A stretch of DNA of 42,605 bases from a virus, in the IMG/VR virus record IMGVR_UViG_3300020477_001071, positions 1 to 42,605 of that record; one strand, given 5' to 3'. Shown here piece by piece: positions 4,064 through 36,094 of the stretch. Both the position numbers and the translations under genes were made by a program. Numbering within the stretch: position 1 is the stretch's first letter; each line of letters starts with the position of its first letter. The notes under the pieces were generated by a model, which was not told the origin of the DNA, searched no databases, and saw nothing but the letters and a program-made list of their open reading frames with translations.

Positions 4064-5710
4064 CTAAACTAGGTTTTTGATCTTAGAAATTGATTTTATT
4101 ATAAAACTTCCTCGTTTTATGTCGCGATTACCAATTAATAAAACGATTTGGCCTTCAGTAAGGTCTTTTTGATATTTTGTCCACTCATCAGAAAACATCG
4201 TAATATTGTCCAAGCTACATGTGCCGTCGCTAGCTGTAATAAATGCCATTTTTTGCCCTTTTGAATTGCCCTTTTTTATTTTCCATTCACGTATATAGTC
4301 AATTTGAGCCGCGATACGTATGCCTTTTTGAGAATTAAATCCATCAACATATTCTTTACAGGTGCAATTGGCGCGACTAGTATCATATTCATCAACTCGT
4401 GCGCATGTTAATGCTACGCCTAAATAGTGTTCTTCTTTTCTGGCTTTCCAGCCGGGAAGATCGACTAATTCATAACCCGGATTTTTTAAAGAATCAACAA
4501 TGCTGGCAACGACCTCTACTCGATCTCGTCGGAATATAGGCCGTTTACGATCTGACCAATCATTTTCATCAATCATCGCCTGAATACATTGTGTTAGGTT
4601 ATGGTCAATATGGTTTTGTTTATAACTCTGTAACCAAGGGATTTCTCTTTTACTTAATTCTCTAAACATTTTTAATTCATGATTCATTTTACTTCGACTA
4701 ACTTTAAAACAATCTAAAGCGCCACTAAGAATTAAAGCTTCAAAAGCATCGACTTTTATACACGGACCAAAGCCAATAAGAAACATATCCCAGTCACATG
4801 TTTTAAGATCTATTTTATTTTTTTCTAGACATAACATCATTTTATCGTATACCGAACCGCCTACTCCTTTAATTTCGGTTATGCCAAAAGTTGGTAGCTT
4901 ACCATTGATTAAAGTGAAATACTTGTTCATCTTTTTTATATTAGGAGGCTGCACATCAATATTCATAAGTCGGGCATTATTTATTAATTCTTCTATTTCT
5001 AAATATGCATCTGGTTTACCAATAGAATTTTTAAGATATGAGGTAAAAAATTCATGTGGAAAATGAGCTTTTGTATATGCTGTTAAATATGAATTGTATG
5101 CATAACTTACCGAATGAGATTTATTAAAAGAATATCGTTGTGACTTTTCTATCCAACTAAATATTTCTTTAGCTTGTTCTTTTGTAACGGTTCCTTTGTC
5201 TGAGGCCTTTTGAATAAATTGCTGTCTTAAGTCTGCCATTAAGCTTACGTTCTTTTTACCAATCGCTTTACGTAGAATATCAGCTTCTTGTAAATTAAAG
5301 CCCGCAACGTCTCGCGCAATTAATAGGGCTTGTTCTTGATAAACTAAAATACCATATGTACTAGACAGAATAGGCTTTAGTGCATCATGAAAATACTCTA
5401 CAGGATCTATTCCATGTTTACGATCTATATAGTGTTGTGTTAGGCTTTTACCGTCTACTATAGCTTCCATACATCCGGGTCTGATAATAGCAATTAAATC
5501 AGATAGCTCTTCAATACTGCGAGGCTTAACTTGTTCGGCCTTGCTTCGTCCAAGCTGGGACTCTAATTGAAATATTCCTTTAGTATTGCCTGCTGAAATC
5601 ATATCCCAAGTATGTTCGCAGTTTAGTGGTAATGTTTCAATGTTGGGATCATATACAATATGGTCGTCGCGTACTTCAAATTTACATCCACATTTAAAAA
5701 GTTTAGCCAC
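4064..5710 (-). CDS. dnaE: DNA polymerase III alpha subunit, C-terminal half (fingers to OB)
   Basis: A 548-residue protein corresponding to the part of bacterial DnaE after the third catalytic aspartate. Recognisable in order: a short N-terminal cap with a C-x-C and later C-x-H (residues 7, 9, 31, 33); F-Q-L-E-S (about 47-51); the fingers segment with S-S-T-Y-G-I-L-V-Y-Q-E-Q (about 115-126) and A-D-I-L-R-K-A-I-G-K-K; the F-N-K-S-H-S-x-x-Y-A helix (about 193-204); helix-hairpin-helix region; and a C-terminal OB fold (about 455-548) with the G-x-x-M-A-F-I-T-x-x-D-G-T pattern. The tau-binding tail of E. coli DnaE is absent and no QxxLF-type clamp motif is obvious. It must pair with the N-terminal half encoded at 6720-8582 to make an active polymerase (inference). 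It overlaps the exonuclease gene by eight bases. Confidence 0.92.
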   Translation of the reverse strand: MAKLFKCGCKFEVRDDHIVYDPNIETLPLNCEHTWDMISAGNTKGIFQLESQLGRSKAEQVKPRSIEELSDLIAIIRPGCMEAIVDGKSLTQHYIDRKHGIDPVEYFHDALKPILSSTYGILVYQEQALLIARDVAGFNLQEADILRKAIGKKNVSLMADLRQQFIQKASDKGTVTKEQAKEIFSWIEKSQRYSFNKSHSVSYAYNSYLTAYTKAHFPHEFFTSYLKNSIGKPDAYLEIEELINNARLMNIDVQPPNIKKMNKYFTLINGKLPTFGITEIKGVGGSVYDKMMLCLEKNKIDLKTCDWDMFLIGFGPCIKVDAFEALILSGALDCFKVSRSKMNHELKMFRELSKREIPWLQSYKQNHIDHNLTQCIQAMIDENDWSDRKRPIFRRDRVEVVASIVDSLKNPGYELVDLPGWKARKEEHYLGVALTCARVDEYDTSRANCTCKEYVDGFNSQKGIRIAAQIDYIREWKIKKGNSKGQKMAFITASDGTCSLDNITMFSDEWTKYQKDLTEGQIVLLIGNRDIKRGSFIIKSISKIKNLV

Positions 5711-6374
5711 TCATTGCTCCCTTAAATTTTGCTACGCTAGACTGTCGTCGATGAAACTTGATAAATTGTGTTAAGAGTTTTGCGCTGTCTACTGTATCAG
5801 AATATGCCTCATGTGCCTGTTCTGCTTTGACACCAAAAAAATCTCTCATTGTATCAAGTCGCATGTTTTTGGGTTCGTCCAGATTTTCAAACCAATAAAA
5901 CAAGAGGTCCATTAAATCCATTTTATTGACTTTGGCAAAGGGCATTGGGGTTTTATGTTTTTTAGCTAGTCTTTCGCAAATAGGTAGATCAAAACCAATA
6001 ATGTTATATCCTGCTGGAATGGGTTCAGTATACCAATTTCCATAGGATTTTTCAATATGGAATTTTTTACAATACTCACAAAAGTTTTTCCAAGCAATTT
6101 TTTCGCTTTTACCCTTCTTCCATGCTGCTACTATATCTGTGCTTTCCACGCCGCGCTGTTTAGCGTGCCACTCAATAGTCTTTTGACGTTCATCTGTAAA
6201 GTATTCTTCTTTTGTTATACCGGGAGGTTTAATAACTGTTCTGAATGCTTTATCTGTTTTAATTTCTAAAGTGCGTGGCTCTATCGGCACAGCAGCTAAT
6301 TCTACTGGATTGCAAGTAGCTGGATCAGTACCATCGGTCTCCCAATCAAAAACTATAATCCAACGATTATTCAT
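5703..6374 (-). CDS. dnaQ: DnaQ-like 3'-5' proofreading exonuclease (DEDDh)
   Basis: A 223-residue DEDD exonuclease. Exo I is D-W-E-T (residues about 10-13, the D-x-E pair), Exo II is the I-I-G-F-D-L-P-I segment, and Exo III is H-E-A-Y-S-D near the C-terminus, fitting the H-x-A-x-x-D pattern of the DEDDh subfamily. In bacteria this activity is the epsilon proofreading subunit of the replicase. Lying between the two halves of the polymerase gene, and overlapping the downstream half by eight bases, it most likely proofreads for this split polymerase. It overlaps the SET-domain gene by four bases upstream. Family call is firm; the direct partnership is inferred. Confidence 0.88.
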   Translation of the reverse strand: MNNRWIIVFDWETDGTDPATCNPVELAAVPIEPRTLEIKTDKAFRTVIKPPGITKEEYFTDERQKTIEWHAKQRGVESTDIVAAWKKGKSEKIAWKNFCEYCKKFHIEKSYGNWYTEPIPAGYNIIGFDLPICERLAKKHKTPMPFAKVNKMDLMDLLFYWFENLDEPKNMRLDTMRDFFGVKAEQAHEAYSDTVDSAKLLTQFIKFHRRQSSVAKFKGAMSG

Positions 6375-6718
6375 TTCATCTCCTCGTTTGATATGTTATA
6401 TAAAGAATAGTAGGTCGTAAGTTCTGTATTAGCAGGTATTAATTGTTTCGTAATTAACATCAACACCGTTTCCCTTTTCCAGTCTTTGTCATGGTCTCCT
6501 ACAATTATGTTTGATTTAATTAATTTGCAGTTGGACACGTTAGCATGATTGATAAATCCACCCAGTGGCGTACGTATATATTGATTTTCAAAGTTATGAT
6601 TGTGAATGTGGGTTATTCCTAGATTATGTCCCTCTTTGATATCACAGGTAGCAAATAATCCTAAACCGTCTATGTGTGACTTATTGATTGTCACTTCTGA
6701 AGGTAGTGGTCTATACAT
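6371..6718 (-). CDS. Small SET-domain protein (putative lysine methyltransferase)
   Basis: A 115-residue minimal SET domain. The S-adenosylmethionine-binding start G-L-G-L-F-A is at residues 18-23. The family's N-H-S-C-x-P-N motif appears as G-F-I-N-H-A-N-V-S-N-C (about 54-64), and the catalytic-tyrosine region as N-T-E-L-T-T-Y-Y (about 97-104). No pre- or post-SET cysteine clusters are present, as in small viral SET proteins. It sits between the N-terminal polymerase half (one base away) and the exonuclease (four-base overlap). The target is unknown; a lysine on a replication protein or a host nucleoid protein is possible. The fold is well supported, the activity less so because N-H-A-N-V-S-N-C departs from consensus. 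Confidence 0.78.
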   Translation of the reverse strand: MYRPLPSEVTINKSHIDGLGLFATCDIKEGHNLGITHIHNHNFENQYIRTPLGGFINHANVSNCKLIKSNIIVGDHDKDWKRETVLMLITKQLIPANTELTTYYSLYNISNEEMK

Positions 6719-6719
6719 G

Positions 6720-8582
6720 TTATCCTTTTAAAATTAGAGGAACTTCCATTATTTTATCTAACATTCTAATACCTAAAACATCCAATTTCAGCAAACCAAC
6801 ATCTTCGCAGCTTGGACCTTCAAAACCAGCCAGCAAATCGGTTTCGCTTTTATTAGCTGATTTAACCATAGGACAAGTTTCGGATATTGGAGATGGAGAT
6901 ACAACCACACCAGCAGCATGTTTTGATTGTATAATTTTGGTTCCTTCCATACGCATGGCTTGTTCAAAAATGCGCGCCATTTTACCTTCCAGCTTTCCGT
7001 CATCTCCTATCTCACACCAATCTTTAAGCTTATCTTTTCTATTTTTTAAGGCCCATAGAATTAATGATGCCTCTCCCAACTCCTCCTTCATGTCTTGAAG
7101 CTCATCGGCAATTTTAGCTTCGTCCATAATATGTTTTGTAATTTCATTTTGTTCTGTAAATGATATATTGCCTCGCGCTTGCATAACACGTTTAAGAGCG
7201 GACCTACCTTGTAACGTTTGATAAGTAACAATTTGTGCTACGTTCGCTTTGCCGTACTTTTGTTTCATATAGTCAATAACTTTTTCTCTAGCTTCTTTAG
7301 GTACATCAAGATCAATATCGGGCATAGAGATTCGTTCGTCTGTATTTCTACCGGCATTGTAAAATCTTTCAAAAACTAAATCATATTTAATGGGATCAAT
7401 TTGAGTAATTCCGATCAAATAAGAAACCATACATCCCGCTGCACTACCCCTGCCGGGACCAGTTAAGTAGCCTTCATGTTTACAATACTTAAGAATATCT
7501 TGAACAATAAGAAAGTAACTAGATAGTCCCGCTTCTTCAAACACCTCCAGTTCTCGATTCACACGGTCTCCATATTGCTCAAACTCTTCAGTGTTCTTTT
7601 TGACATGACCCATTTTTTCAGCCCATCCCAATTTACATAGATGTCGTAAATATTCTTTCGGACTATATCCGGTAGGGGCTTTAAATTCGGGAGGGTTAGG
7701 TGCGCCTAAAATATTATATTGTTCACACATAGAGGCAATTTTAAGCGTATTGTCTAATTCTTCATCGGTATGAAACTTTTTCATATCTTCATACGATGGT
7801 ATATGGTAATTGTTAGAGGCAAAGAACGAGCTTAAGGATTTTGACTTACCCTGTTTTAATTCTTGTCTAACTTGTCCTATAGTTTTTTTAAGTGAAGTAC
7901 ACAATAAGACTCTTTGGTCCTCGGCTGCTTCTCGCGTAGGATAATGAGCATCAGGAGTGGCTACGCATGGTATATTAGCTTGCTTGGCAATGTCGCGCAA
8001 TCGTTCTCCTGCGATACGGGCGCCTTCGTTATTTTCTGAATCTATTAGTTGAATTTCAATAAAGAAATTGTCTCGACCAAACATGTTTTGTAATCGATGA
8101 GCTGCTTCACAAATAAAGCTATCAGATTGGTTTTCGAGAGCTATATTCCCCAAATAAGATCCTAAGTGTCCGCTAAATGAAATTAAGTTCCCTGAAGAGG
8201 CAGCTTCACGTAATTGATTAAAGTCAATGCGAGGTTTATAGTAAAATTGATCGGCATGATTCGATTGGGAAACCAAGCCGAGAATCTGCTTCCACCCCTC
8301 TAGGTTTTTAGCTAATACCACTTGGTGAATTAACTTTCTATTTTCAGACGATTTTTCTGTAGCATCTTTTTCTGATAAATAAAACTCACACCCTAAGATT
8401 TGTTTTTGTGATGCGCCTTTAAAGGTTCTGCAAAAATCTACCGCACCTGATACCGTACCATGATCGGTAAGAGCACAAGTGTCTATTTCTATCTTATTTA
8501 ATCGTTTAGAAATTTGAGAGGCTTGTGAAAGTCCATCTAGTAAGCTATATTCAGAATGGACATGCAATGGAACGTAGGTCAT
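6720..8582 (-). CDS. dnaE: DNA polymerase III alpha subunit, N-terminal half (PHP and palm)
   Basis: A 620-residue protein holding the PHP domain (H-V-H-S-E-Y-S-L-L-D-G at 7-17, T-D-H-G near 40, L-G-C-E-F near 65, P-D-A-H-Y near 210) and the palm. G-P-G-R-G-S-A-A-G is at about 374-382; the first two catalytic aspartates are in P-D-I-D-L-D at about 420-425, and the third is in K-L-D-V-L-G at about 605. The protein stops about 17 residues later, exactly where the fingers domain would start in bacterial DnaE (about 1160 residues in E. coli). The remainder is encoded separately at 4064-5710. PHP metal ligands look conserved. No intein residues are seen at the end. It overlaps the upstream small gene by four bases. 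Confidence 0.93.
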   Translation of the reverse strand: MTYVPLHVHSEYSLLDGLSQASQISKRLNKIEIDTCALTDHGTVSGAVDFCRTFKGASQKQILGCEFYLSEKDATEKSSENRKLIHQVVLAKNLEGWKQILGLVSQSNHADQFYYKPRIDFNQLREAASSGNLISFSGHLGSYLGNIALENQSDSFICEAAHRLQNMFGRDNFFIEIQLIDSENNEGARIAGERLRDIAKQANIPCVATPDAHYPTREAAEDQRVLLCTSLKKTIGQVRQELKQGKSKSLSSFFASNNYHIPSYEDMKKFHTDEELDNTLKIASMCEQYNILGAPNPPEFKAPTGYSPKEYLRHLCKLGWAEKMGHVKKNTEEFEQYGDRVNRELEVFEEAGLSSYFLIVQDILKYCKHEGYLTGPGRGSAAGCMVSYLIGITQIDPIKYDLVFERFYNAGRNTDERISMPDIDLDVPKEAREKVIDYMKQKYGKANVAQIVTYQTLQGRSALKRVMQARGNISFTEQNEITKHIMDEAKIADELQDMKEELGEASLILWALKNRKDKLKDWCEIGDDGKLEGKMARIFEQAMRMEGTKIIQSKHAAGVVVSPSPISETCPMVKSANKSETDLLAGFEGPSCEDVGLLKLDVLGIRMLDKIMEVPLILKG

Positions 8583-9070
8583 TTCCGCCTCCTAAAGTTG
8601 CGTAGTTCCGATATCGGCACATTATAACAGTCGGCTTTAACCATAAATCCATTAGAGCGATCAATCTCTCCTCGATTAAGCTTTTCGGCTTTTTCAAAAT
8701 ATTCATCGTGTTCTAACCATCCCAAAACCCATGCCCGTCCCCATTTTCCATTTACCCATTCTATACGAACAAAGGCGTATCGATCACACTTCTGCTTAGT
8801 ATTATACGCCGCAACCGAACATTCGTAGTGAGATTTTGGTGGAGAAGTGCATCTTTTAGTTTTTACATCATATTTAATATTTTTGTAAACTATGTCATAA
8901 TTATAAGTATTGGTAACTTCTCCTTTAATGAGTGCGTTGGCGACCTCCTCTCCCAAAAACCCCGCAATATTACCTTGTCCTCTCGTAATAGAGTTTCTGA
9001 GCTTACCCATTTTACGTGCTTTAGCCCACGCTCGTTTTTTCATTTGTGGTGTTATTTTAACTTCTATCAT
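8579..9070 (-). CDS. Putative PD-(D/E)XK-like nuclease, small
   Basis: A 163-residue protein. The arrangement G-F-L-G-E-E (about residues 38-43), then Y-D-I-V (about 58-61) and D-V-K-T-K (about 68-72) resembles the E...D...(D/E)xK core of restriction-type nucleases. The C-terminus is basic (NFRRRK). It sits between the Cas4-like nuclease and the polymerase and overlaps the polymerase start by four bases, which suggests a replication or recombination role. I do not recognise a specific family, and the alternative is a DNA-binding protein of unknown function. Confidence 0.6.
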   Translation of the reverse strand: MIEVKITPQMKKRAWAKARKMGKLRNSITRGQGNIAGFLGEEVANALIKGEVTNTYNYDIVYKNIKYDVKTKRCTSPPKSHYECSVAAYNTKQKCDRYAFVRIEWVNGKWGRAWVLGWLEHDEYFEKAEKLNRGEIDRSNGFMVKADCYNVPISELRNFRRRK

Positions 9071-9162: not shown

Positions 9163-10233
9163 TTACACTTCTCCCGGTGCTTGATAAGTTCCAATAACAT
9201 GCTCTGGATGTGCAATGTTTTGAGTAACCCAATCAATACCATATTTTTTAATCATATATCGTGTTTGTTCACATTTAGTCATAGGTTCTCCGTAGGGAGT
9301 TTTTTGTCTAGGACGGTGTTCGCTTATAGACTCAACATGCGTATCTTCAAAAGTACTCATTCCTTGATGGCATAGCTTTGTACATTTCCATGATTGCTTA
9401 GGATCTATTTGTCTAATAGTTTTAGGGTCATCTGTATTCTTAATAAATTGAAATTTTTGCTTTAACATTTCTTCTGTGTCTTTTAAGTCTTCATCTTGAA
9501 ATTGCAATGTAAATGCACCACCATCATTAATAAAAATAATAGTAATTATAAACGCTTTGACATCTGGAAACATTTGTTTCATGGCATAGTGATAGATCCG
9601 TAGTTGTGCGTCATTAAATAAGCTGGCTTGTGTTTTTTCTTTTCCTGTTGCCCAGTCAAGTCTTCTACCCGTTTTCCAATCGATAACTTCATAAACCCCA
9701 TCTCCCAAGTCGGTGACAAGATCGATAGTGCCTTTCATAGCAAGGTTTCCAGTTAGTTTTATATCATCCATATCATACGTGTACGACGCCCAGTCTTTGT
9801 CGATAACAAAATCAAATCGCGGCTCAGCAGCAACCACGTCTCTATTTCTAGGATCAAACGACCCATCGTTAAGCTGAAGCGCTTTCCAAACCCATAATTG
9901 ACAATCTTTTGCGTCTTTGTCTGTCCATGTATGATGTTTAATACGACTGGTGTAATATTCATATACTCTGGCCGTAATTTTATTTAAATACTCGGGCTTA
10001 TAATTGCTAGTACTAACTCTTCCAATATGTTCATCTACAATAATTTTTTTACCGTCTTGTGCTCCCTTTTTAGCTACTGCACATATTTCTAATACTTTGT
10101 GTACAATAGTGCCTTTATCAGCTTTTTTATTAGACGGCCCTCGCCATCCTAGCGTATATTCTAGGTAGTATTGCATCGGACAAAACCGATGACAATTAAA
10201 CGATGACGATCTAAAATATACAATAGGGATCAT
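9163..10233 (-). CDS. Cas4/RecB-type PD-(D/E)XK exonuclease, probably Fe-S
   Basis: A 356-residue nuclease of the PDDEXK_1 type. Landmarks: an N-terminal C-x3-C (C14, C18) followed by Q-Y-Y-L-E-Y; G-T-I-V-H (41-45); the Glu of A-E-P-R-F-D (137); G-T-I-D-L-V (D171); V-I-D-W-K-T-G (D185, K187); and the Q-x3-Y motif (Q210, Y214). Three more cysteines near the C-terminus (K-C-T-K-L-C and K-C-E-Q) could complete an Fe-S cluster with the N-terminal one, as in Cas4 and AddB. It probably trims DNA ends for recombination with the RecA homologue. No CRISPR array or other cas genes are present, so an adaptation role is not suggested. Confidence 0.82.
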   Translation of the reverse strand: MIPIVYFRSSSFNCHRFCPMQYYLEYTLGWRGPSNKKADKGTIVHKVLEICAVAKKGAQDGKKIIVDEHIGRVSTSNYKPEYLNKITARVYEYYTSRIKHHTWTDKDAKDCQLWVWKALQLNDGSFDPRNRDVVAAEPRFDFVIDKDWASYTYDMDDIKLTGNLAMKGTIDLVTDLGDGVYEVIDWKTGRRLDWATGKEKTQASLFNDAQLRIYHYAMKQMFPDVKAFIITIIFINDGGAFTLQFQDEDLKDTEEMLKQKFQFIKNTDDPKTIRQIDPKQSWKCTKLCHQGMSTFEDTHVESISEHRPRQKTPYGEPMTKCEQTRYMIKKYGIDWVTQNIAHPEHVIGTYQAPGEV

Positions 10234-11421: not shown

Positions 11422-11721
11422 TTATTCCTGATTCTGAGTTAGTTTTTGAACTGTTTCGATCATTCCATCTGCTTCGTCAATATCTTTAAGTAATTTAATA
11501 ACCTCTTCTACTATATCCGAATGTTCAGCTACGCCAACTGAATTGGTGAGGTATCCATTAACATTAGCAACAGCTCGTGCCTTTTGAGCAATATAATGCG
11601 CATGAACTGCACCAATAATGGACTGTTGCATAAGGTTTGTGGGCTGTTGTTCAGGTGGTGATGCTGGCGTTGGATTGTCTACGTTATTGTTATCGTCGTT
11701 CATTGTAAAAGTTTCAGCCAT
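11422..11721 (-). CDS. Small acidic protein of unknown function
   Basis: A 99-residue acidic protein with a disordered N-terminus (Asn/Asp, Pro and Gln rich, residues 1-30) and a helical remainder that could form a coiled coil. No family recognised. It overlaps the primase gene by eight bases and is followed four bases later by the dNMP kinase, so it belongs to the replication operon and may be an accessory factor. Translation coupling and gene density support it as real. Confidence 0.65.
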   Translation of the reverse strand: MAETFTMNDDNNNVDNPTPASPPEQQPTNLMQQSIIGAVHAHYIAQKARAVANVNGYLTNSVGVAEHSDIVEEVIKLLKDIDEADGMIETVQKLTQNQE

Positions 11722-12868
11722 AAGATTCTCCTAGTTTAGAAATTAAAGGTTTTATATCATTGGTAACTACATCTACATTCATATCTCCTATGTCGTTTGT
11801 GTTTAATTGCGGGAAGTATAAACGATACATTTTTGAACATTGTTCATAGATTTTCTTAGCTCCTTTCTTACCTGCCTCATCGTTGTCTAACAAAACAACT
11901 ATAGATAATGCTCCTGAACTATCTATAATATTTTTTTGATTTTGACTTAGATGCGCTCCAAAAATTGCAACCGCATTATGGATTCCTGCTTCTTCTAATC
12001 TCCAAATGTTGCCCGGAGATTCTACCAATACCACCACTCCTGTTTTAGCGATGTGTGGTTTGGCGTACCAATAATTATACAAACAGTTTTCCTTTTTGAA
12101 GCCCTTTGTGTGCTTCCATTTTGGAAAAAAATGACATTTTTTTGTAGGGTCGTGGTAGTGTTTGCATTTTGAACATTCCGCATGAATACTCCGTCCGCTA
12201 AAACCTAAAATGTATTCTCCCGACTCATCATAGATAGGGACCACAGCGCGTTGATAAAGCTCCTTTTTGGACTTATTGCACGTACCCACATCGTACTTGT
12301 CTAAAATTTCAATGGAGTATCCTCGTTGTAAATAATATGTAGCTGGAATGTCAACCTTATTACGATATGCCTCTATGTCAAATTTATTTTTCGTAATTTC
12401 TGGAGTAGTAAAGTTATTAATTAGTGATGCAAATTTTAACTTGTCGGCGTTATGATATTGTTCCTGAGAGCTAATATCTCCAAAGTTTTGTTGTGTAATA
12501 TTTAATAAAAATTCTACAGTCTCATTGAACGATGCTTCTTTATCTCCTTCGATCTTCCAATTATATTTTACTCTTGATAACCCACCTCGTACTAAGCTAA
12601 TTAAAGATGACCCAAAAGTATCTTCGCATTGATGAGTTCTACACTTATAATGAACTCTAATATCAGCATTATAGTACAAATTTAAAGCGGTTGGATTATC
12701 GCCTCCATGAATAAAGCAGGGCGATTTAATTAAAATATTGTTTTTATAAGATGGTTCTGTGTCAAAATAGCTATAAATTTTATCAATATGATTGACAACT
12801 AGACTAGTTAGTGCGTTTAGCTTAGCTTGGTCTTTATATTTATAAGTATTATGAGAAGGGGATGTCAT
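11714..12868 (-). CDS. dnaG: DnaG-type DNA primase
   Basis: A 384-residue primase. The N-terminal CHC2-type zinc site uses C51, H54, C76 and C81. The Toprim domain has its Glu in L-V-E-S-P (E283) and the metal-binding D-N-D (328-330) followed by G-K-K-G-A. An extra Cys/His cluster (C232, C235, C245, C262 with nearby His) lies between them, which I do not know from bacterial DnaG. It is shorter than bacterial DnaG (about 580) and lacks a helicase-interaction domain. It overlaps the DnaB-like helicase by 20 bases, so the two are likely made together to act at the fork. Confidence 0.87.
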   Translation of the reverse strand: MTSPSHNTYKYKDQAKLNALTSLVVNHIDKIYSYFDTEPSYKNNILIKSPCFIHGGDNPTALNLYYNADIRVHYKCRTHQCEDTFGSSLISLVRGGLSRVKYNWKIEGDKEASFNETVEFLLNITQQNFGDISSQEQYHNADKLKFASLINNFTTPEITKNKFDIEAYRNKVDIPATYYLQRGYSIEILDKYDVGTCNKSKKELYQRAVVPIYDESGEYILGFSGRSIHAECSKCKHYHDPTKKCHFFPKWKHTKGFKKENCLYNYWYAKPHIAKTGVVVLVESPGNIWRLEEAGIHNAVAIFGAHLSQNQKNIIDSSGALSIVVLLDNDEAGKKGAKKIYEQCSKMYRLYFPQLNTNDIGDMNVDVVTNDIKPLISKLGESYG

Positions 12869-14300
12869 CGGTGTAGTTTCCTATGTTATCAGTATCAATC
12901 AAATCGGTTCCGTCTTCTAGTTCAAACGCAGTTTTACCTTCTATTAATTTTCCATACTTACCAATCATGTTAACATTAATATAGTCTTTATCTTGGAGCC
13001 CTTCTCCATGTCTTGCAATTAATGGTACAAGCTTTCTATTTCCGTTCTCAGGCCCGTCTTTTGCAATCTCTTCATCAGATTTATTTTTGTAAATACTAAA
13101 GTTAGAACATAGCCAAATAATTCTGTCTGATCCGCTCGCGGTATCTGTAGACTCTTTAGTAATACCATCTCTATTTAATTGTATGAAAGCTAAAATAGGA
13201 ATCTCATATTTGATGGCAAAATTATGTAACCCTGTCATAAGAAAACCTAACGCTTGATATTCTTTCATGTCTCCTTTAATTTCTGATGACTCCATGATTT
13301 TTAAATAGTCATAGATCACCACACAGTCATTAGCTTTTCCTTCAGCATTTATACCCACTTCTTTTGCAAGCCATCTTCTCATAATCGAGAGTTGATCTTC
13401 AAAAGGTTTTCCTCCGATAGATTTGTGATAGTAAGGAATATCTTTTACATTTTTAGCAGTATCACGAATCTTTTGATTTTTATAACTATTTGAGGCAAAC
13501 TTACCAGTTTCAATATCGCTGATTGCTACTTCAGTTAGCATAGCAATACCTCTATCCTGATGGTCTTTTTTGACCATTTCGGTATCCAAATTCAAGACAG
13601 GAATGTTGAGTTCGCGTGCTATATAAATACCCGCATTTTCTGCAAATAAAGTTTTCCCCGTTTTAGGTCTAGCGCCAATTACATTAACTGTGCCTCTCCT
13701 TAGTCCTCCCCCGATAGCAAAATCATAACGACTAAACCCTGTAGGAATTCCCACTTGATCAATAGGATTTTTTGATAGTTCGTCTAACCGGTCTTCTAAA
13801 TCCGAAAAAACTTTTTGCGGAGAATCGTCGCTATCGTTTAATAGAGAAGTAAATTCAAATATAGATTCTTCAGCTATCCCCAGTATTTGAGAGATCGGCT
13901 CATCTCCTACGACTTGAGCATAACGATCCTTAGTAGACTCTAATTGATCATACATCATACGTGCAATTTGGAGCTTACGTACTTTAACAGCCATCTTACG
14001 CACGTTGTCCGGTAAGATCGGAAACTTCATTATACCCGACAGATGTTGTATCTCTTCTTTACTAGATACTAGCTCGTGTAAATTTAATTCTTTTGCTGAT
14101 GATAGAATAGTAGGTAGATCAATATTTGCAACCGCATCCTTATCCATTACTCGTTTTAAACAAGCATAAATCATGGAGTTAGATTCGATAGTAAAGCTAT
14201 TAGAATCTATTAAATCTGCTACATCGTAATAGGCTTGTGATCCATACTTACATATTCCTGCGAGTATTGCTCGTTCAGCAGGAGCATCAGACAACATCAT
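12849..14300 (-). CDS. dnaB: Replicative DNA helicase, DnaB family
   Basis: A 483-residue DnaB-type helicase. The N-terminal helical domain (1-100) carries the A-E-R-A-I-L-A-G-I start typical of DnaB. The RecA-like domain has T-G-F-S-R-Y-D (about 187-193), Walker A G-A-R-P-K-T-G-K-T (209-217), Walker B-like V-V-I-Y-D-Y-L-K, and I-L-A-F-I-Q-L-N-R (motif H3). It unwinds DNA ahead of the polymerase as a hexamer. The gene is fifteen bases from the hemolysin-III-like gene upstream and overlaps the primase. Length is normal (E. coli 471). Confidence 0.93.
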   Translation of the reverse strand: MMLSDAPAERAILAGICKYGSQAYYDVADLIDSNSFTIESNSMIYACLKRVMDKDAVANIDLPTILSSAKELNLHELVSSKEEIQHLSGIMKFPILPDNVRKMAVKVRKLQIARMMYDQLESTKDRYAQVVGDEPISQILGIAEESIFEFTSLLNDSDDSPQKVFSDLEDRLDELSKNPIDQVGIPTGFSRYDFAIGGGLRRGTVNVIGARPKTGKTLFAENAGIYIARELNIPVLNLDTEMVKKDHQDRGIAMLTEVAISDIETGKFASNSYKNQKIRDTAKNVKDIPYYHKSIGGKPFEDQLSIMRRWLAKEVGINAEGKANDCVVIYDYLKIMESSEIKGDMKEYQALGFLMTGLHNFAIKYEIPILAFIQLNRDGITKESTDTASGSDRIIWLCSNFSIYKNKSDEEIAKDGPENGNRKLVPLIARHGEGLQDKDYINVNMIGKYGKLIEGKTAFELEDGTDLIDTDNIGNYTDDIPFS

Positions 14301-14315
14301 ATCGTTTATCCTTTT

Positions 14316-14996
14316 TTATGAGTCTAGCGGTATCGAATTTGCGTGCATAACCAATAATACGATAGCATGAAAATGGGTAATACTTGCAGCAATAACTAAT
14401 ATGTGCCAAATAGTATGAAAGTGATATTTACGATAGTCTAAAACAAGAAATATAGTTCCGATGCTATATAAAATTCCACCTATGATCATTAAATTTATAA
14501 TCTTCGCCGTTAAGGATGGCTGTATAAGTAGAATCGTCAACGACTCTATCCATCCTAAAATGAGATATAACTTAACATCTACATTGTTTAGGTTGTGTGA
14601 AAAAAGCAATTTAGAGACACATCCTATTAAAGCCAGTAACCACAAGAGTATTACTATCGATAATTTAACCGTAAATGAAATAGACTGATCACGCAGTAAA
14701 AAATACATAAATGGAGTTGCTGTACCTACTATAAGCAAATATATAAACGCTTGGTCACACTTACGTAAAAAAGTATTAATGTGTTTAAACATATACATAT
14801 GTGACAGGGTGGAGGCGAGATATACCATGGTTAAAGTTATTGCATACACAACACATAAACTGGTTAGTAGTGGATTTACATAACTATACGTCATATGTAA
14901 TAGTATGTAGCCGCCGATAATGCTTAAAAGTAATCCTAATCCGTGTGTAATAACTGCTTCTAATTCTTCGTGCTTAGTGCGTAAGTTATGTATCAT
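14316..14996 (-). CDS. Hemolysin III / PAQR-family membrane protein
   Basis: A 226-residue protein with about seven hydrophobic segments. Hallmarks of the HlyIII/AdipoR/PAQR superfamily are present: an N-terminal E-E-L-E-A-V-I-T-H-G; S-T-L-S-H-M-Y in the third segment; K-C-D-Q-A-F-I-Y-L-L-I-V-G-T-A-T-P-F; and near the end F-H-T-I-W-H and H-F-H-A, the His metal ligands of the family. Enzymatic function in bacteria is uncertain; a ceramidase-type hydrolase or membrane stress role is proposed for the superfamily. Its place just ahead of the helicase suggests early expression. A consensus sigma-70-type promoter lies about 150 bases upstream, inside the previous gene. Confidence 0.82.
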   Translation of the reverse strand: MIHNLRTKHEELEAVITHGLGLLLSIIGGYILLHMTYSYVNPLLTSLCVVYAITLTMVYLASTLSHMYMFKHINTFLRKCDQAFIYLLIVGTATPFMYFLLRDQSISFTVKLSIVILLWLLALIGCVSKLLFSHNLNNVDVKLYLILGWIESLTILLIQPSLTAKIINLMIIGGILYSIGTIFLVLDYRKYHFHTIWHILVIAASITHFHAIVLLVMHANSIPLDS

Positions 14997-16314: not shown

Positions 16315-17271
16315 TTATTTTTCAGGAGGAAGAGCAATTGTAACAGGTGGTAGAGTTGGCATGTCATTAATCGATGGTAATAAAATTGGAAATTGTTTAG
16401 AGTCTTTGCTTATAGTAGATGCTTCCATAGACCGATGTTCAATAGGTAGTTTGATAATATCTTTATATGGTGGTACGGGTAGTGTTTCATCCAAAGCCCA
16501 TAGTATGTTGTGTTTTTGTGCCCATTGCCTCATGCGTCGAATAGGTACTATTAGATTAAAAGTTTCTCCTGCTCCTCGCACTAACATACCTGCATATCGT
16601 CCAGTATATTCTCCTGAAGATTCAGTTAAAAAAATACCGCCTCCAGAACTTCCCGGAAACGCAGGAGCGCTTGTTTGATCAAAAACAACGCCGTCTCCAG
16701 TCCCTAAATATAATACTCGTCCTACTTTCGACATGATGCCACGAGTCATTGAATTTGAGCCCACCTGACCCAGTAAGCTTCCAACATGGTATAGTTCAGT
16801 ACCAACTGGAATCGGCTTATCTAAAGGATAAAATAAAATATTTTGGTCTACAAAATTTCTTTTACGTACAAGTAAAAGCGCTAAATCTTCGCCGCTTTCG
16901 GCATCGCTATATTTTAAGACTTTGGCATCCATTTTAATTTCGCCTACACGACGACCATTTTCTACTAATTCTTTTACAATTTGCGCGTCTTTAAATTCTA
17001 CAACTTTTTTAGGAGTTCCGCTTTCAATCGTATTGCGTACTGATCGTAAATGAGAAACAACATGCGCGGCTGTCCATACAAAATTAATTTGTTCTGTTGC
17101 GTTTCCTACGGGTACTTCACGAGTAATAATAACTCCTGATCCTTCGCTAGAATTGGCCTTTACAGTTACTGATACGTCTTGTAGCTTTTGGTACAAGATG
17201 ACATCACCGCCATATGTCGAAAGAGCACTAATAAATACTAAAAATACCGTTAGTAACATTTTGTATAGCAT
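16315..17271 (-). CDS. Exported trypsin-like serine protease (HtrA/DegP-like domain)
   Basis: A 318-residue protein. Residues 1-20 are a Sec-type signal peptide (MLYKM then a hydrophobic core). The catalytic triad of the S1/trypsin fold is visible: W-T-A-A-H (H70), E-D-L-A-L (D129) and P-G-S-S-G-G (S209). No PDZ domain is present; the C-terminal 70 residues look disordered and Pro-rich. It would act in the periplasm or outside the cell. It begins eight bases after recA and is followed by the small nuclease. Roles might be lysis, host envelope change or processing of virion proteins; none can be chosen from sequence. Confidence 0.8.
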   Translation of the reverse strand: MLYKMLLTVFLVFISALSTYGGDVILYQKLQDVSVTVKANSSEGSGVIITREVPVGNATEQINFVWTAAHVVSHLRSVRNTIESGTPKKVVEFKDAQIVKELVENGRRVGEIKMDAKVLKYSDAESGEDLALLLVRKRNFVDQNILFYPLDKPIPVGTELYHVGSLLGQVGSNSMTRGIMSKVGRVLYLGTGDGVVFDQTSAPAFPGSSGGGIFLTESSGEYTGRYAGMLVRGAGETFNLIVPIRRMRQWAQKHNILWALDETLPVPPYKDIIKLPIEHRSMEASTISKDSKQFPILLPSINDMPTLPPVTIALPPEK

Positions 17272-33570: not shown

Positions 33571-35886
33571 TTAAAACTCAAAACCCATGCGGCGCATGAA
33601 TTCGGTTTTAACCCATTGCTCAATAGATTCTGCTACTTCCTTATACCCCAAAACATTAAACTCACCACGTTTTAATCGGCTTATTGCCTGCTTATATAAA
33701 AATCCTATCATCGCTTCATGGTAAAGGATATGACGATTAATAGTAGCACTAGAAACTCGTTTTAAAAATTGGTTCTGTACATATGACTCAATAGCGTCAG
33801 CAGCTTTGGTTTGACTGCTAACTTTAAACGGCACTGACTTCTTAAGAACAATTAATCTATCGCGCTTTAATAACTCTACAGCCTCTTTGTACAGATGTGC
33901 GTAAAATGCCAATTCTTCTACTCGTTCTCCATCAGATTTTTTTAAATCGACAAAATCTTTAATTCTGTCGCTCGCCTTTGGAAATGAAGGTTCTTGAATA
34001 CAATCTAACACCCGATCACAGTCACAGTCTTCCTTCGCATCTGGTTGTGATCGACGTGTTTCTTTCTTAGGGGTAGAATGCGAAACCTTTATATGGTCTT
34101 TGTCATCAATTGTATTGTAGATATTAAAGTCTATGTCTTTTGTTGCTGTTTGTAAATTATGAAACTTATGATCGATTTCTTTTTTAAGATTATCAATTTT
34201 TGATTCAAATGCAGAACCTAGTCTATCTTCAAGATAGTCAGCCAAGCCTCTCAGGTCGGCTGTTTGCGTAGGTTTCGTAGGTTCTGGTTCTGTAGCAGAT
34301 GGATCATTATCTTGCGATGTAGGTGGAATATCATCTTCCCATATACCATCAATCATGTCTGTAACCTTTGTCTTTCCTCTGAGTTGCCAGTATAGTCCTG
34401 CAATCCATGCGAGCGCTCCAGTAGCAGTACCTCCAAACAACCACCGGAATAAATTACGTTGTTGTTTTACTTCTATTGTATCTTGTTCCAAATTATAATT
34501 TTCATTTGCCAACCCATCAATAATATTGCTCTTGCTGTCTAAGTCTTCTTTCAGGTTAGAGATTTCGCCAAGCTGTGTAGTAATATCGTTTTGTAATGTT
34601 CCGATACGCTTTTGTAGGTATAAAATTTCATCATTGTTTAAATTTTCATTTGACTTTAATGACTTTAATTGGTTTTGTAATTTCTCTAAAAGTTCTTGTT
34701 TTTCGCTAATCGTGGTTGATAATGATTCTTTTTCTTTGACCAATACTTCGATTGTTCCATCTTTTTCACTTACTGATGTAGTTAGGTCTTCTACTTGCTT
34801 AGCTAGTCCTCCAATATCATTTTTTAATTTTTCTATAGTATCTTTATATTCTTGAAGTTTTTTATTGGCTTCTGGAACAAAGTCTTTACCAAAGTTGGGA
34901 GGTAATACCCCATAAGGGTTCGTGTTGTCGCCATCGTTTTCAGGAGCTGGATTTTCTTTGGGAGGAGTATTATTATTAGGAGGACTGATAAATGGAGGAC
35001 AACGACCACCCGGACATTGTACTTCCATTAGAATTCCCCACTGAGCAATTGGTACTGAAGGAGATCCCGCAGGGAAGGTAACTGACTGTAACCATCCCGT
35101 ATGGTCCCAATTTTGCAGATAATAAACACCATTAACGCCTAATGCATAATATGCTTTTCGAGTAATAATATTAGCAGTATCTGTGTTTGTAGACGCATTA
35201 GCATATTGCCAACTATCGGGAACTTGTGTGGGGTCATAGGAAGCCTCACCTTTTACCGCACGTAAAAAGTTACCAATATGTATCGCTCCACCTTTACTAT
35301 TTTCAATTCTCCATGTTAATACCGCACAGAGATACGTGTCCCCATCTATAACTGTATAGACTCCCGATCCGCTTTGCCCTCCTAATGGGGGTGGTGTAAA
35401 TAGTACTCGGTTTTTAGAAGCTTCTGATAACGCATGACCTTCCCACAGCTGAAGCCACCGGGCTTGAGGACAACCTGCGGACGCTATATAGTCATTTTTC
35501 TGTACGACATGGTCAGCAGGGGCTAATGGTACAATCCGTGGAGGAAATTCTCCAAACAAAGCTTTCTCAATACGAATAATCGCAAAGTCTTTGACGCTTC
35601 TATCACTGTGGGACTTCCAGATAATTGCGCCGGGAAGTCTCTGTGTCTTTCTTCCGTATCTAAAAAATTCACACGTAGCTGTTCTATTAGAACCTACAAC
35701 GTGCGCGTTGGTTAAAATATATACGTGTGTGTCATCAGCCGCAATTGATGTTCCACTGCCAGCAGAACCGGATACTCGTACCCTACAAGAAGCTTCACCA
35801 ATTTCATTAAGGCTTAAAAATTTACCTTGTGCTACGGATAAGCACAACGTTAAAAATAATACGAAAGAAAGGATAAAAGATCTCAT
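33571..35886 (-). CDS. Membrane-spanning trypsin-like protease with coiled-coil stalk
   Basis: I start at ATG 35886 (AGG site seven bases upstream); 771 residues. Order: signal peptide (1-20); trypsin-like domain with T-N-A-H (H62), K-D-F-A (D100) and G-Q-S-G-S-G (S172); a further exported segment (225-300) ending in a C-P-G-G-R-C pair; Pro/Asn-rich linker; coiled coil (about 340-478); one membrane helix (about 480-502); then an inner, acidic C-terminal half with two related helical repeats (about 635-690 and 705-771). The protease part would face outside, the tail inside. This arrangement is unlike DegS or DegP. It overlaps the upstream small gene by a few bases. Function is unknown; host-envelope or assembly sensing is possible. 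Confidence 0.8.
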   Translation of the reverse strand: MRSFILSFVLFLTLCLSVAQGKFLSLNEIGEASCRVRVSGSAGSGTSIAADDTHVYILTNAHVVGSNRTATCEFFRYGRKTQRLPGAIIWKSHSDRSVKDFAIIRIEKALFGEFPPRIVPLAPADHVVQKNDYIASAGCPQARWLQLWEGHALSEASKNRVLFTPPPLGGQSGSGVYTVIDGDTYLCAVLTWRIENSKGGAIHIGNFLRAVKGEASYDPTQVPDSWQYANASTNTDTANIITRKAYYALGVNGVYYLQNWDHTGWLQSVTFPAGSPSVPIAQWGILMEVQCPGGRCPPFISPPNNNTPPKENPAPENDGDNTNPYGVLPPNFGKDFVPEANKKLQEYKDTIEKLKNDIGGLAKQVEDLTTSVSEKDGTIEVLVKEKESLSTTISEKQELLEKLQNQLKSLKSNENLNNDEILYLQKRIGTLQNDITTQLGEISNLKEDLDSKSNIIDGLANENYNLEQDTIEVKQQRNLFRWLFGGTATGALAWIAGLYWQLRGKTKVTDMIDGIWEDDIPPTSQDNDPSATEPEPTKPTQTADLRGLADYLEDRLGSAFESKIDNLKKEIDHKFHNLQTATKDIDFNIYNTIDDKDHIKVSHSTPKKETRRSQPDAKEDCDCDRVLDCIQEPSFPKASDRIKDFVDLKKSDGERVEELAFYAHLYKEAVELLKRDRLIVLKKSVPFKVSSQTKAADAIESYVQNQFLKRVSSATINRHILYHEAMIGFLYKQAISRLKRGEFNVLGYKEVAESIEQWVKTEFMRRMGFEF

Positions 35887-35890
35887 AATA

Positions 35891-36094
35891 TTACCTGCTA
35901 TTGTCAAAGGTTAAATCATTGCTTTGGACGAAGTGTGTTATCATGTCCTCAATAGTATCAACATGATTCCAATAAATCGCAGATCCTAGAGTCCCTTCAT
36001 CTTGCGCGATATCGTTTTCAGGATAGAAAAGATTCGCTATATCTTCAGCTAAAAAGCGATATGTAGGTGTATTATTTGTACTACTAGTATTCAT
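35891..36094 (-). CDS. Small acidic protein, unknown function
   Basis: A 67-residue acidic, Asn/Thr-rich protein. No family recognised. It overlaps the gene upstream by eleven bases and ends five bases before the preferred start of the membrane protease gene. Its location suggests co-translation with that protease. Confidence 0.5.
   Translation of the reverse strand: MNTSSTNNTPTYRFLAEDIANLFYPENDIAQDEGTLGSAIYWNHVDTIEDMITHFVQSNDLTFDNSR

What the first reader, a model, noticed from the sequence alone, without database searches (positions are those of the whole stretch)
4064..8582. DNA polymerase III alpha split in two, with SET and DnaQ genes between the halves
Directly seen: the first gene holds PHP plus palm with both PDIDLD aspartates and the third Asp (KLDVLG), and stops right there. 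The second gene restarts just before FQLES and runs through fingers to the OB fold. Two intact genes, a SET-domain protein and a DEDDh exonuclease, lie between them, with 1-8 base overlaps or gaps throughout. This split point differs from the cyanobacterial split-intein dnaE break, which falls further downstream. Halves must assemble without splicing. A four-gene replicase unit (polymerase N, methyltransferase, proofreader, polymerase C) is a strong candidate for an undescribed arrangement.
Basis: partly seen in the sequence, partly recalled or inferred. Interest (0 to 1): 0.78.

Follow-up and report, generated by a model that had tools for sequence, protein, structure and literature searches.

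The report
Phage replicase gene split around proofreader
A large group of uncultivated phages makes its only detectable DNA-copying enzyme as two separate proteins, with the gene for the proofreading enzyme always lying between the two halves, so the parts must find each other to copy the viral genome.

Summary
The window (an IMG/VR phage contig) carries a C-family DNA polymerase (DnaE) cut between palm and fingers: polN (PHP + palm, all catalytic Asp) and polC (fingers, HhH, OB), with nothing missing and no intein. The same cut occurs in 131 of 131 distinct related IMG/VR loci. A DEDDh exonuclease gene always lies between the halves, usually overlapping the polC start by 4 or 8 nt. These loci form one clade on a long stem, apart from all sampled bacterial and phage DnaE. 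Fourteen clade contigs (to 200 kb) hold no second DnaE, PolA or PolB. Most likely this is an ancient, intein-free fission of the phages' own replicase.

The 'four-gene unit' is not supported: SET is a local passenger (three lineages); other members carry uracil glycosylases, Zn ribbons, HNH endonucleases, thyX or nothing there. The core module is polN–exo–polC. Split replicative polymerases are known (archaeal PolB; a minimal Pol III in some jumbo phages; phage phiT1, cut at the same joint), so this is a new variant of a known kind. Assembly of the halves and binding of the exonuclease are inferred, not shown.

The parts
6720..8582 (-). polN: N-terminal half of a C-family DNA polymerase (DnaE-like alpha): PHP domain (metal ligands H7,H9,D16,H41,E66,H86,H139,D211,H213 all present) + palm/thumb with D422,D424,D426 and D601; ends 15-20 residues after the third Asp
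6371..6718 (-). SET-domain protein (115 aa), lineage-specific passenger in the polN-exo slot
   Evidence: only window/L002, L007, L112
5703..6374 (-). exo: stand-alone DEDDh 3'-5' exonuclease (DnaQ-like); D10, E12, D129, H188, D193 identical in 108/108 homologues; always between polN and polC
4064..5710 (-). polC: C-terminal half (fingers, HhH, OB fold; no tau-binding tail), GTG start, with a clade-specific N-terminal extension carrying a CGCxF motif plus Cys31
8588..8594 (-). Shine-Dalgarno-like TAGGAGG of polN
   Evidence: sequence
6723..6728 (-). Shine-Dalgarno-like AAAGGA of SET, inside the end of polN
   Evidence: sequence
6380..6385 (-). Shine-Dalgarno-like GAGGAG of exo, inside the end of SET
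   Evidence: sequence
5717..5723 (-). Shine-Dalgarno-like AAGGGAG of polC, inside the end of exo
   Evidence: sequence
8579..9070 (-). conserved 163-aa protein of unknown family directly upstream of polN (homologue sits between exo and polC in L046)
9163..10233 (-). PD-(D/E)XK nuclease, neighbour conserved across the clade
11714..14300 (-). DnaG-like primase (11714-12868) and DnaB-like helicase (12849-14300) of the same replication block

Best explanation
This is the replicative DNA polymerase of a large clade of uncultivated tailed-phage-like viruses. It is encoded as two genes after an ancient fission at the palm/fingers junction (between residues about 574 and 579 of E. coli alpha). Shown: the break, its conservation, completeness of both halves, absence of an intein at the break, an intact DEDDh exonuclease gene always between the halves, and no other detectable DNA polymerase in long contigs of the clade. 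Inferred: polN (PHP + palm, all catalytic Asp) and polC (fingers, HhH, OB) bind each other non-covalently and rebuild an ordinary alpha fold; the exonuclease binds this core as an epsilon-like proofreader; and the overlapping polycistronic layout (exo stop overlapping polC start) couples translation so that the parts appear together. The fission probably began with insertion of mobile genes (homing endonuclease or fractured-gene type) at the joint; today the joint also accepts cargo genes such as SET.
For: 131/131 distinct loci split, exo between, same strand; exo-to-polC distance at most 30 nt in 114/131, most often -4 or -8. Single clade (SH-aLRT 100, stem 1.1) apart from bacterial and phage DnaE. 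The halves are complementary: AlphaFold models with pLDDT 92/92 match E. coli alpha 4-574 (2hnh, Z 38.9) and 579-947 (5fkv, Z 20.7), Mtb DnaE1 8-606 (Z 42.1) and 609-933 (Z 20.8). Catalytic Asp 52/52; exo motif 108/108. No PolA, PolB or second DnaE in 14 contigs. Evolutionary distances of polN, polC and exo correlate (r 0.94-0.95), i.e. they are inherited together. Mobile elements hit the same genes: HNH or homing endonuclease genes in the polN-exo slot of L058 and L069; a split intein with an endonuclease-like gene in polN of L272 and L294; LAGLIDADG in polN of L101; an intein in polC of L076.
Against: No experiment, and no model of the assembled complex (only single unaltered proteins could be folded). 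Contigs are fragments with no completeness estimate, so another polymerase or a clamp could lie outside them; no DnaN was found in 16 contigs, so the source of processivity is unknown. The correlation of distances also follows from plain co-inheritance. Loci were fetched by similarity to the split halves, so an unsplit close relative could be under-sampled, although none appeared. Homing elements seen today sit near or in these genes but not as remnants at the window's own joint.
Confidence: 0.8

Rival explanations
1. The halves are joined into one polypeptide by trans-splicing, like cyanobacterial DnaE.
For: Split inteins do occur in this clade: in L272, L289 and L294 polN is broken at GPGRG by an intein N-part (TIGR01445, 35.5 and 37.8 bits in L272 and L294, cut-off 24.5) and a C-part ending in VHN before Ser, with an endonuclease-like gene between.
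Against: At the palm/fingers joint polN ends within about 20 residues of the LDKIM motif and polC has only 19-70 residues before GNTKG, too short for intein parts; checked in 129 tails and 124 heads (two apparent long tails, L045 and L139, look like misses of the motif search and were not inspected further). NCBIfam finds intein models in L272, L294 and L076 but none in the window's polN or polC.
Confidence: 0.03
2. RNA-level joining: the 1-kb stretch with SET and exo is an intron or is bypassed, giving one alpha.
For: Phage DnaE genes do carry intron- or endonuclease-like interruptions elsewhere (L101 and Bacillus phage Jayan near PDIDxD).
Against: No Rfam match in the window at gathering score; the stretch ranges from 647 to 6,781 nt with unrelated contents; polC has its own start codon, its own Shine-Dalgarno-like sequence and its own extension.
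Confidence: 0.03
3. Decaying or accessory polymerase: the halves are remnants or a repair enzyme, and replication uses the host replicase.
For: No phage clamp was found; the PHP domain is degenerate in the L011 lineage.
Against: Catalytic Asp invariant in 52/52 and exo motif in 108/108; both frames open over deep divergence; genes lie in a replication block with primase, DnaB helicase and RecA-like genes; no other polymerase in the contigs.
Confidence: 0.1
4. A true four-subunit replicase in which the SET protein methylates or is part of the polymerase.
For: SET is tightly packed in the operon of the window, and also lies just downstream of polN in L007 and L112.
Against: Absent from nearly all of the 131 loci; the slot holds UDG, QueF, Zn ribbons, glycosyltransferase, HNH endonucleases or nothing.
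Confidence: 0.04

Closest known systems
Bacterial DnaE / Pol III alpha (E. coli, T. aquaticus, M. tuberculosis DnaE1)
   Same: Domain content and fold of the two halves together; PHP ligands as in enzymes with an active PHP; catalytic Asp.
   Different: One gene in 79 of 80 bacterial-genome loci examined (the 80th, L178, is a phage-like MAG contig of this clade); no CGC extension; the tau-binding C-terminal tail is absent here.
Split minimal Pol III alpha of group 2.2 jumbo phages (PMC7824862)
   Same: Phage C-family polymerase in two proteins, predicted to reassemble.
   Different: Those are minimal (no PHP or other Pol III domains), encoded by distant genes, and accompany a family B polymerase; here PHP is intact, the genes are adjacent around an exonuclease gene, and no PolB was found in 14 contigs.
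Rossellomorea phage phiT1 gp20/gp18 (PV767480)
   Same: DnaE split at the same palm/fingers junction.
   Different: A 49-aa ORF between instead of an exonuclease; no CGC extension; about 30% identical; not placed in this clade (grouped with Bacillus phages at support 65 only; the AU test did not finish), so possibly an independent event.
Cyanobacterial split-intein DnaE
   Same: DnaE encoded as two genes.
   Different: Break lies further downstream and is healed by protein trans-splicing; no intein here.
Split family B polymerases: archaeal Methanothermobacter PolB (Kelman 1999, cited in PMC3984812) and T4-like gp43A/gp43B (own knowledge)
   Same: Replicative polymerase working, or predicted to work, as two polypeptides.
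   Different: Unrelated polymerase family.
Fractured genes with split inteins and free endonuclease genes (Dassa et al. 2009, own knowledge; paper not held)
   Same: L272 and L294 show this layout inside polN.
   Different: The palm/fingers break itself has no intein in any member examined.

Membership tests
C-family DNA polymerase (DnaE) | PHP + palm (pol-beta-like fold) with three catalytic Asp | tested here: met
C-family DNA polymerase (DnaE) | fingers, HhH and OB domains | tested here: met
C-family DNA polymerase (DnaE) | single polypeptide (usual, not defining for the fold family) | tested here: not met
   two genes, complementary halves
C-family DNA polymerase (DnaE) | polymerase activity | not testable with these tools
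   needs biochemistry
PolC-type polymerase | exonuclease domain inserted in PHP of the same chain | tested here: not met
   exo is a separate gene; polN PHP uninterrupted
Split-intein DnaE (cyanobacterial type) | intein N- and C-parts at the break | tested here: not met
Jumbo-phage group 2.2 split minimal Pol III | no PHP domain, distant genes, co-occurring PolB | tested here: not met
   PHP intact (5, 65), genes adjacent (74), no PolB in 14 contigs (59)
DEDDh exonuclease (DnaQ-like) | D-E-D-H-D active-site residues | tested here: met
   D10, E12, D129, H188, D193 in 108/108
DEDDh exonuclease (DnaQ-like) | binding to the polymerase as epsilon subunit | not testable with these tools
   inferred from gene position only
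SET lysine methyltransferase | SET domain with NHxxxxNC and ELTxxY motifs | tested here: met
   PF00856 29.4 bits over cut-off 22.4; motifs INHANVSNC and ELTTYYSLY in sequence

The most novel reading that the evidence does not exclude
An obligate three-protein phage replicase in which the exonuclease is not only a proofreader but the bridge that holds the palm and fingers halves together (possibly with the CGC knuckle of polC). This would explain why its gene has stayed between the halves in every member while every other gene at the joint comes and goes.
Probability: 0.15. Interest if true: 0.85.

Novelty: new variant of a known kind. Interest (0 to 1): 0.64.

Why it matters
A replicative polymerase is usually thought of as one chain carrying the active site and template grip. 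Here a whole clade of environmental phages appears to rely on one cut through its centre, stable over deep divergence and without protein splicing. It is a natural test of how little covalent continuity a DNA polymerase needs. It ties proofreader and polymerase into one conserved operon and yields ready-made split polymerase halves. It also matters for annotation: each half alone is easily read as a truncated or broken polymerase. The clade shows further cuts in progress (split intein, LAGLIDADG, HNH genes), so the route from mobile-element insertion to stable fission can be followed.

Tried and rejected
Frameshift or misassembly: rejected by 131 loci and a near-identical second contig. Second full-length DnaE: none in the window or contigs. 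Intein or intron joining: rejected at this joint. SET as core subunit: rejected by distribution. Search for isolates: polN and polC give only matches under 60% identity (best about 30-36%) in 50,697 phage records, and exo gives none. A bacterial-genome scan gave one split locus (L178, binned as Lokiarchaeota), very near virus locus L044 and so most likely mis-binned virus; it gives no reliable host. AU test for phiT1 inside the clade did not finish. Ten literature searches: only PMC7824862 described a split Pol III alpha in phages; the 2009 fractured-genes paper is not held. PMC2147016 turned up in the last search, but its 'split' refers to a tail chaperone gene.

Full report
What is there. 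The window is an IMG/VR virus record of 42,605 bases. On the minus strand four ORFs follow each other: polN 8582-6720 (620 aa), a SET protein 6718-6371 (115 aa), a DEDDh exonuclease 6374-5703 (223 aa) and polC 5710-4064 (548 aa, GTG start). Joints are a 1-nt gap, a 4-nt overlap and an 8-nt overlap. Reading the sequence, each start has its own Shine-Dalgarno-like stretch, the last three inside the end of the gene before, so all four look independently started but translationally coupled. Pfam gives PHP and the complete DNA_pol3_alpha model for polN, and the finger, HhH and (below cut-off) OB models for polC. On phrog_405 the halves end at 609 and start at 622.

Structure. Models built on 52-row alignments of clade members have mean pLDDT 92.2 for both halves. 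polN residues 1-620 align with E. coli alpha 4-574 (2hnh, Z 38.9, 559 aligned, 2.9 A) and Mtb DnaE1 8-606 (5lew, Z 42.1). polC from residue 16 or 17 on aligns with E. coli 579-947 (5fkv, Z 20.7) and Mtb 609-933. The cut thus lies at the start of the fingers, close to the palm/fingers boundary, and the halves are complementary. Asp422, Asp424, Asp426 and Asp601 are identical in 52/52; the nine PHP metal ligands are all present in the window. The L011 lineage has a shortened, degenerate PHP. polC starts with a short clade-specific extension bearing CGCxF (102 of 108 members) and a Cys at position 31 (51 of 52), absent from the linkers of the unsplit DnaE proteins inspected. It could be a metal knuckle that helps the halves dock; this is a guess.

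How general. Five scans of viral contigs were classified by profile searches on all ORFs. Of 131 distinct loci that hold both the palm end and the fingers start, 0 are unsplit, 131 are split, 131 have the exonuclease between, and 131 have all on one strand. The exonuclease-to-polC distance is at most 30 nt in 114, most often -4 (38 loci) or -8 (33). 'Distinct' means not identical over the last 600 nt of polN; a looser k-mer grouping of the loci gave 75 groups. Scans were made with polN or polC, never with exo, so the constancy of exo is not built in. In contrast 79 of 80 DnaE loci from bacterial genomes are single ORFs; the exception, L178, is a short MAG contig very near virus locus L044. Most GenBank phage DnaE genes examined are single ORFs too. 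Rossellomorea phage phiT1 is split at the same joint with only a 49-aa ORF between, and Bacillus phage Jayan is broken at another place, near PDIDxD.

Tree. On concatenated halves the split loci form one group (SH-aLRT 100) with a stem of 1.1 changes per site, apart from all sampled bacterial and phage DnaE; removing two long-branch phages does not change this. phiT1 falls elsewhere without firm support; the AU test did not finish. So a single, old fission in this clade is the simplest reading, with phiT1 perhaps a second one.

Is it the replicase? Fourteen clade contigs of 61-200 kb contain one PF07733 gene each (one of them broken again inside polN) and no PolA or PolB; no DnaN was found in 16. 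The neighbourhood is a replication block: PD-(D/E)XK nuclease, deoxynucleoside monophosphate kinase, primase and DnaB helicase, with a RecA-like gene further on. The contigs may be incomplete, so this is strong but not final.

What the joint contains. Between polN and exo, or exo and polC, members carry: SET (window/L002, L007, L112), a 60-aa SCC-motif protein (most of one subclade), uracil-DNA glycosylase (L051), zinc-ribbon-like ORFs (L009, L030), QueF-like (L032), glycosyltransferase and methyltransferase (L011), thyX (L066), and others.

How it may have arisen. The same genes are under attack by mobile elements. HNH or homing-type endonuclease genes lie in the polN-exo slot of L058 (phrog_374, 6e-28) and L069 (phrog_3322, 1e-18). 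In L101 and four other loci (some may be the same contig) polN is broken near PDIDxD, in the two inspected with a LAGLIDADG-type gene between the pieces. In L272, L289 and L294 polN is broken at GPGRG by a split intein (TIGR01445 above cut-off in L272 and L294; C-part ending VHN before Ser), with an endonuclease-like gene between in L272 and L294. L076 has an intein inside polC. These serve as positive controls: where an intein is present the profiles find it, and none is found at the palm/fingers joint, where polN tails and polC heads are too short. Insertion of a mobile gene at the joint, followed by loss of the element and survival of two interacting halves, is the likeliest route; it is inference.

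Literature. Ten searches of the PMC library found one description of a split phage Pol III alpha: the minimal, PHP-less, distantly encoded version that accompanies PolB in group 2.2 jumbo phages (PMC7824862). A split archaeal PolB is cited in PMC3984812. The arrangement polN-exo-polC was not found described, but subscription papers and preprints are not covered.

Verdict. Observation confirmed; interpretation partly right. It is a new variant of a known kind (split replicative polymerase), with unusual constancy of the exonuclease gene at the cut.

Noticed in passing
L272:4044-7120, L294:4059-7148, L289: polN broken a second time at the catalytic GPGRG|S site by a natural split intein (intein_Nterm TIGR01445 above cut-off in L272 and L294), with an endonuclease-like gene (weak Phage_endo_I/TnsA-like matches) between the pieces in L272 and L294: a polymerase encoded in three pieces, two of which should be trans-spliced.
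   Followed up: partly
L076:8001-10154: polC carries an in-frame intein (Pfam Intein_splicing matches residues 103-253, just under its cut-off) after RPG; C-half is 717 aa instead of about 545.
   Followed up: partly
L101:4108-7101 (also L308, L313, L319, L322): polN broken just before PDIDxD; a LAGLIDADG endonuclease gene lies between the pieces in L101 (the same layout in L313); the neighbouring PD-(D/E)XK gene of L101 also holds a LAGLIDADG intein-like insert.
   Followed up: partly
L260:3110-6392 (Rossellomorea phage phiT1, PV767480): A GenBank phage with DnaE split at the same palm/fingers junction but with only a 49-aa ORF between; would be a tractable laboratory model.
   Followed up: partly
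L103:7123-7302 and most members of that subclade: A conserved ~60-aa protein (motif RxSCC[RK]xxNA) sits between polN and exo; no Pfam match, weak PHROG 2183.
   Followed up: no
window 14316-14996 (-): Phage-encoded Haemolysin-III (HlyIII) family membrane protein next to the DnaB helicase gene.
   Followed up: no
window 16315-17271 and 33571-35907 (-): Two trypsin-like peptidase genes; the second (778 aa, TTG start) carries a long region with weak DUF4407 similarity between residues 347 and 475.
   Followed up: no
window 8579-9070 (-): 163-aa protein without Pfam or PHROG match, conserved directly upstream of polN in close relatives; in L046 its homologue has moved between exo and polC.
   Followed up: partly
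L178 (JABXKB010000087.1): Contig binned as Candidatus Lokiarchaeota carries the split polymerase and is very near virus locus L044; probably mis-binned virus, but worth a host check.
   Followed up: partly
L015:3986-7393 (Bacillus phage Jayan): dnaE broken near PDIDxD with a 76-aa ORF between, the same place as in L101; possibly an intron (no Rfam match at gathering score).
   Followed up: partly
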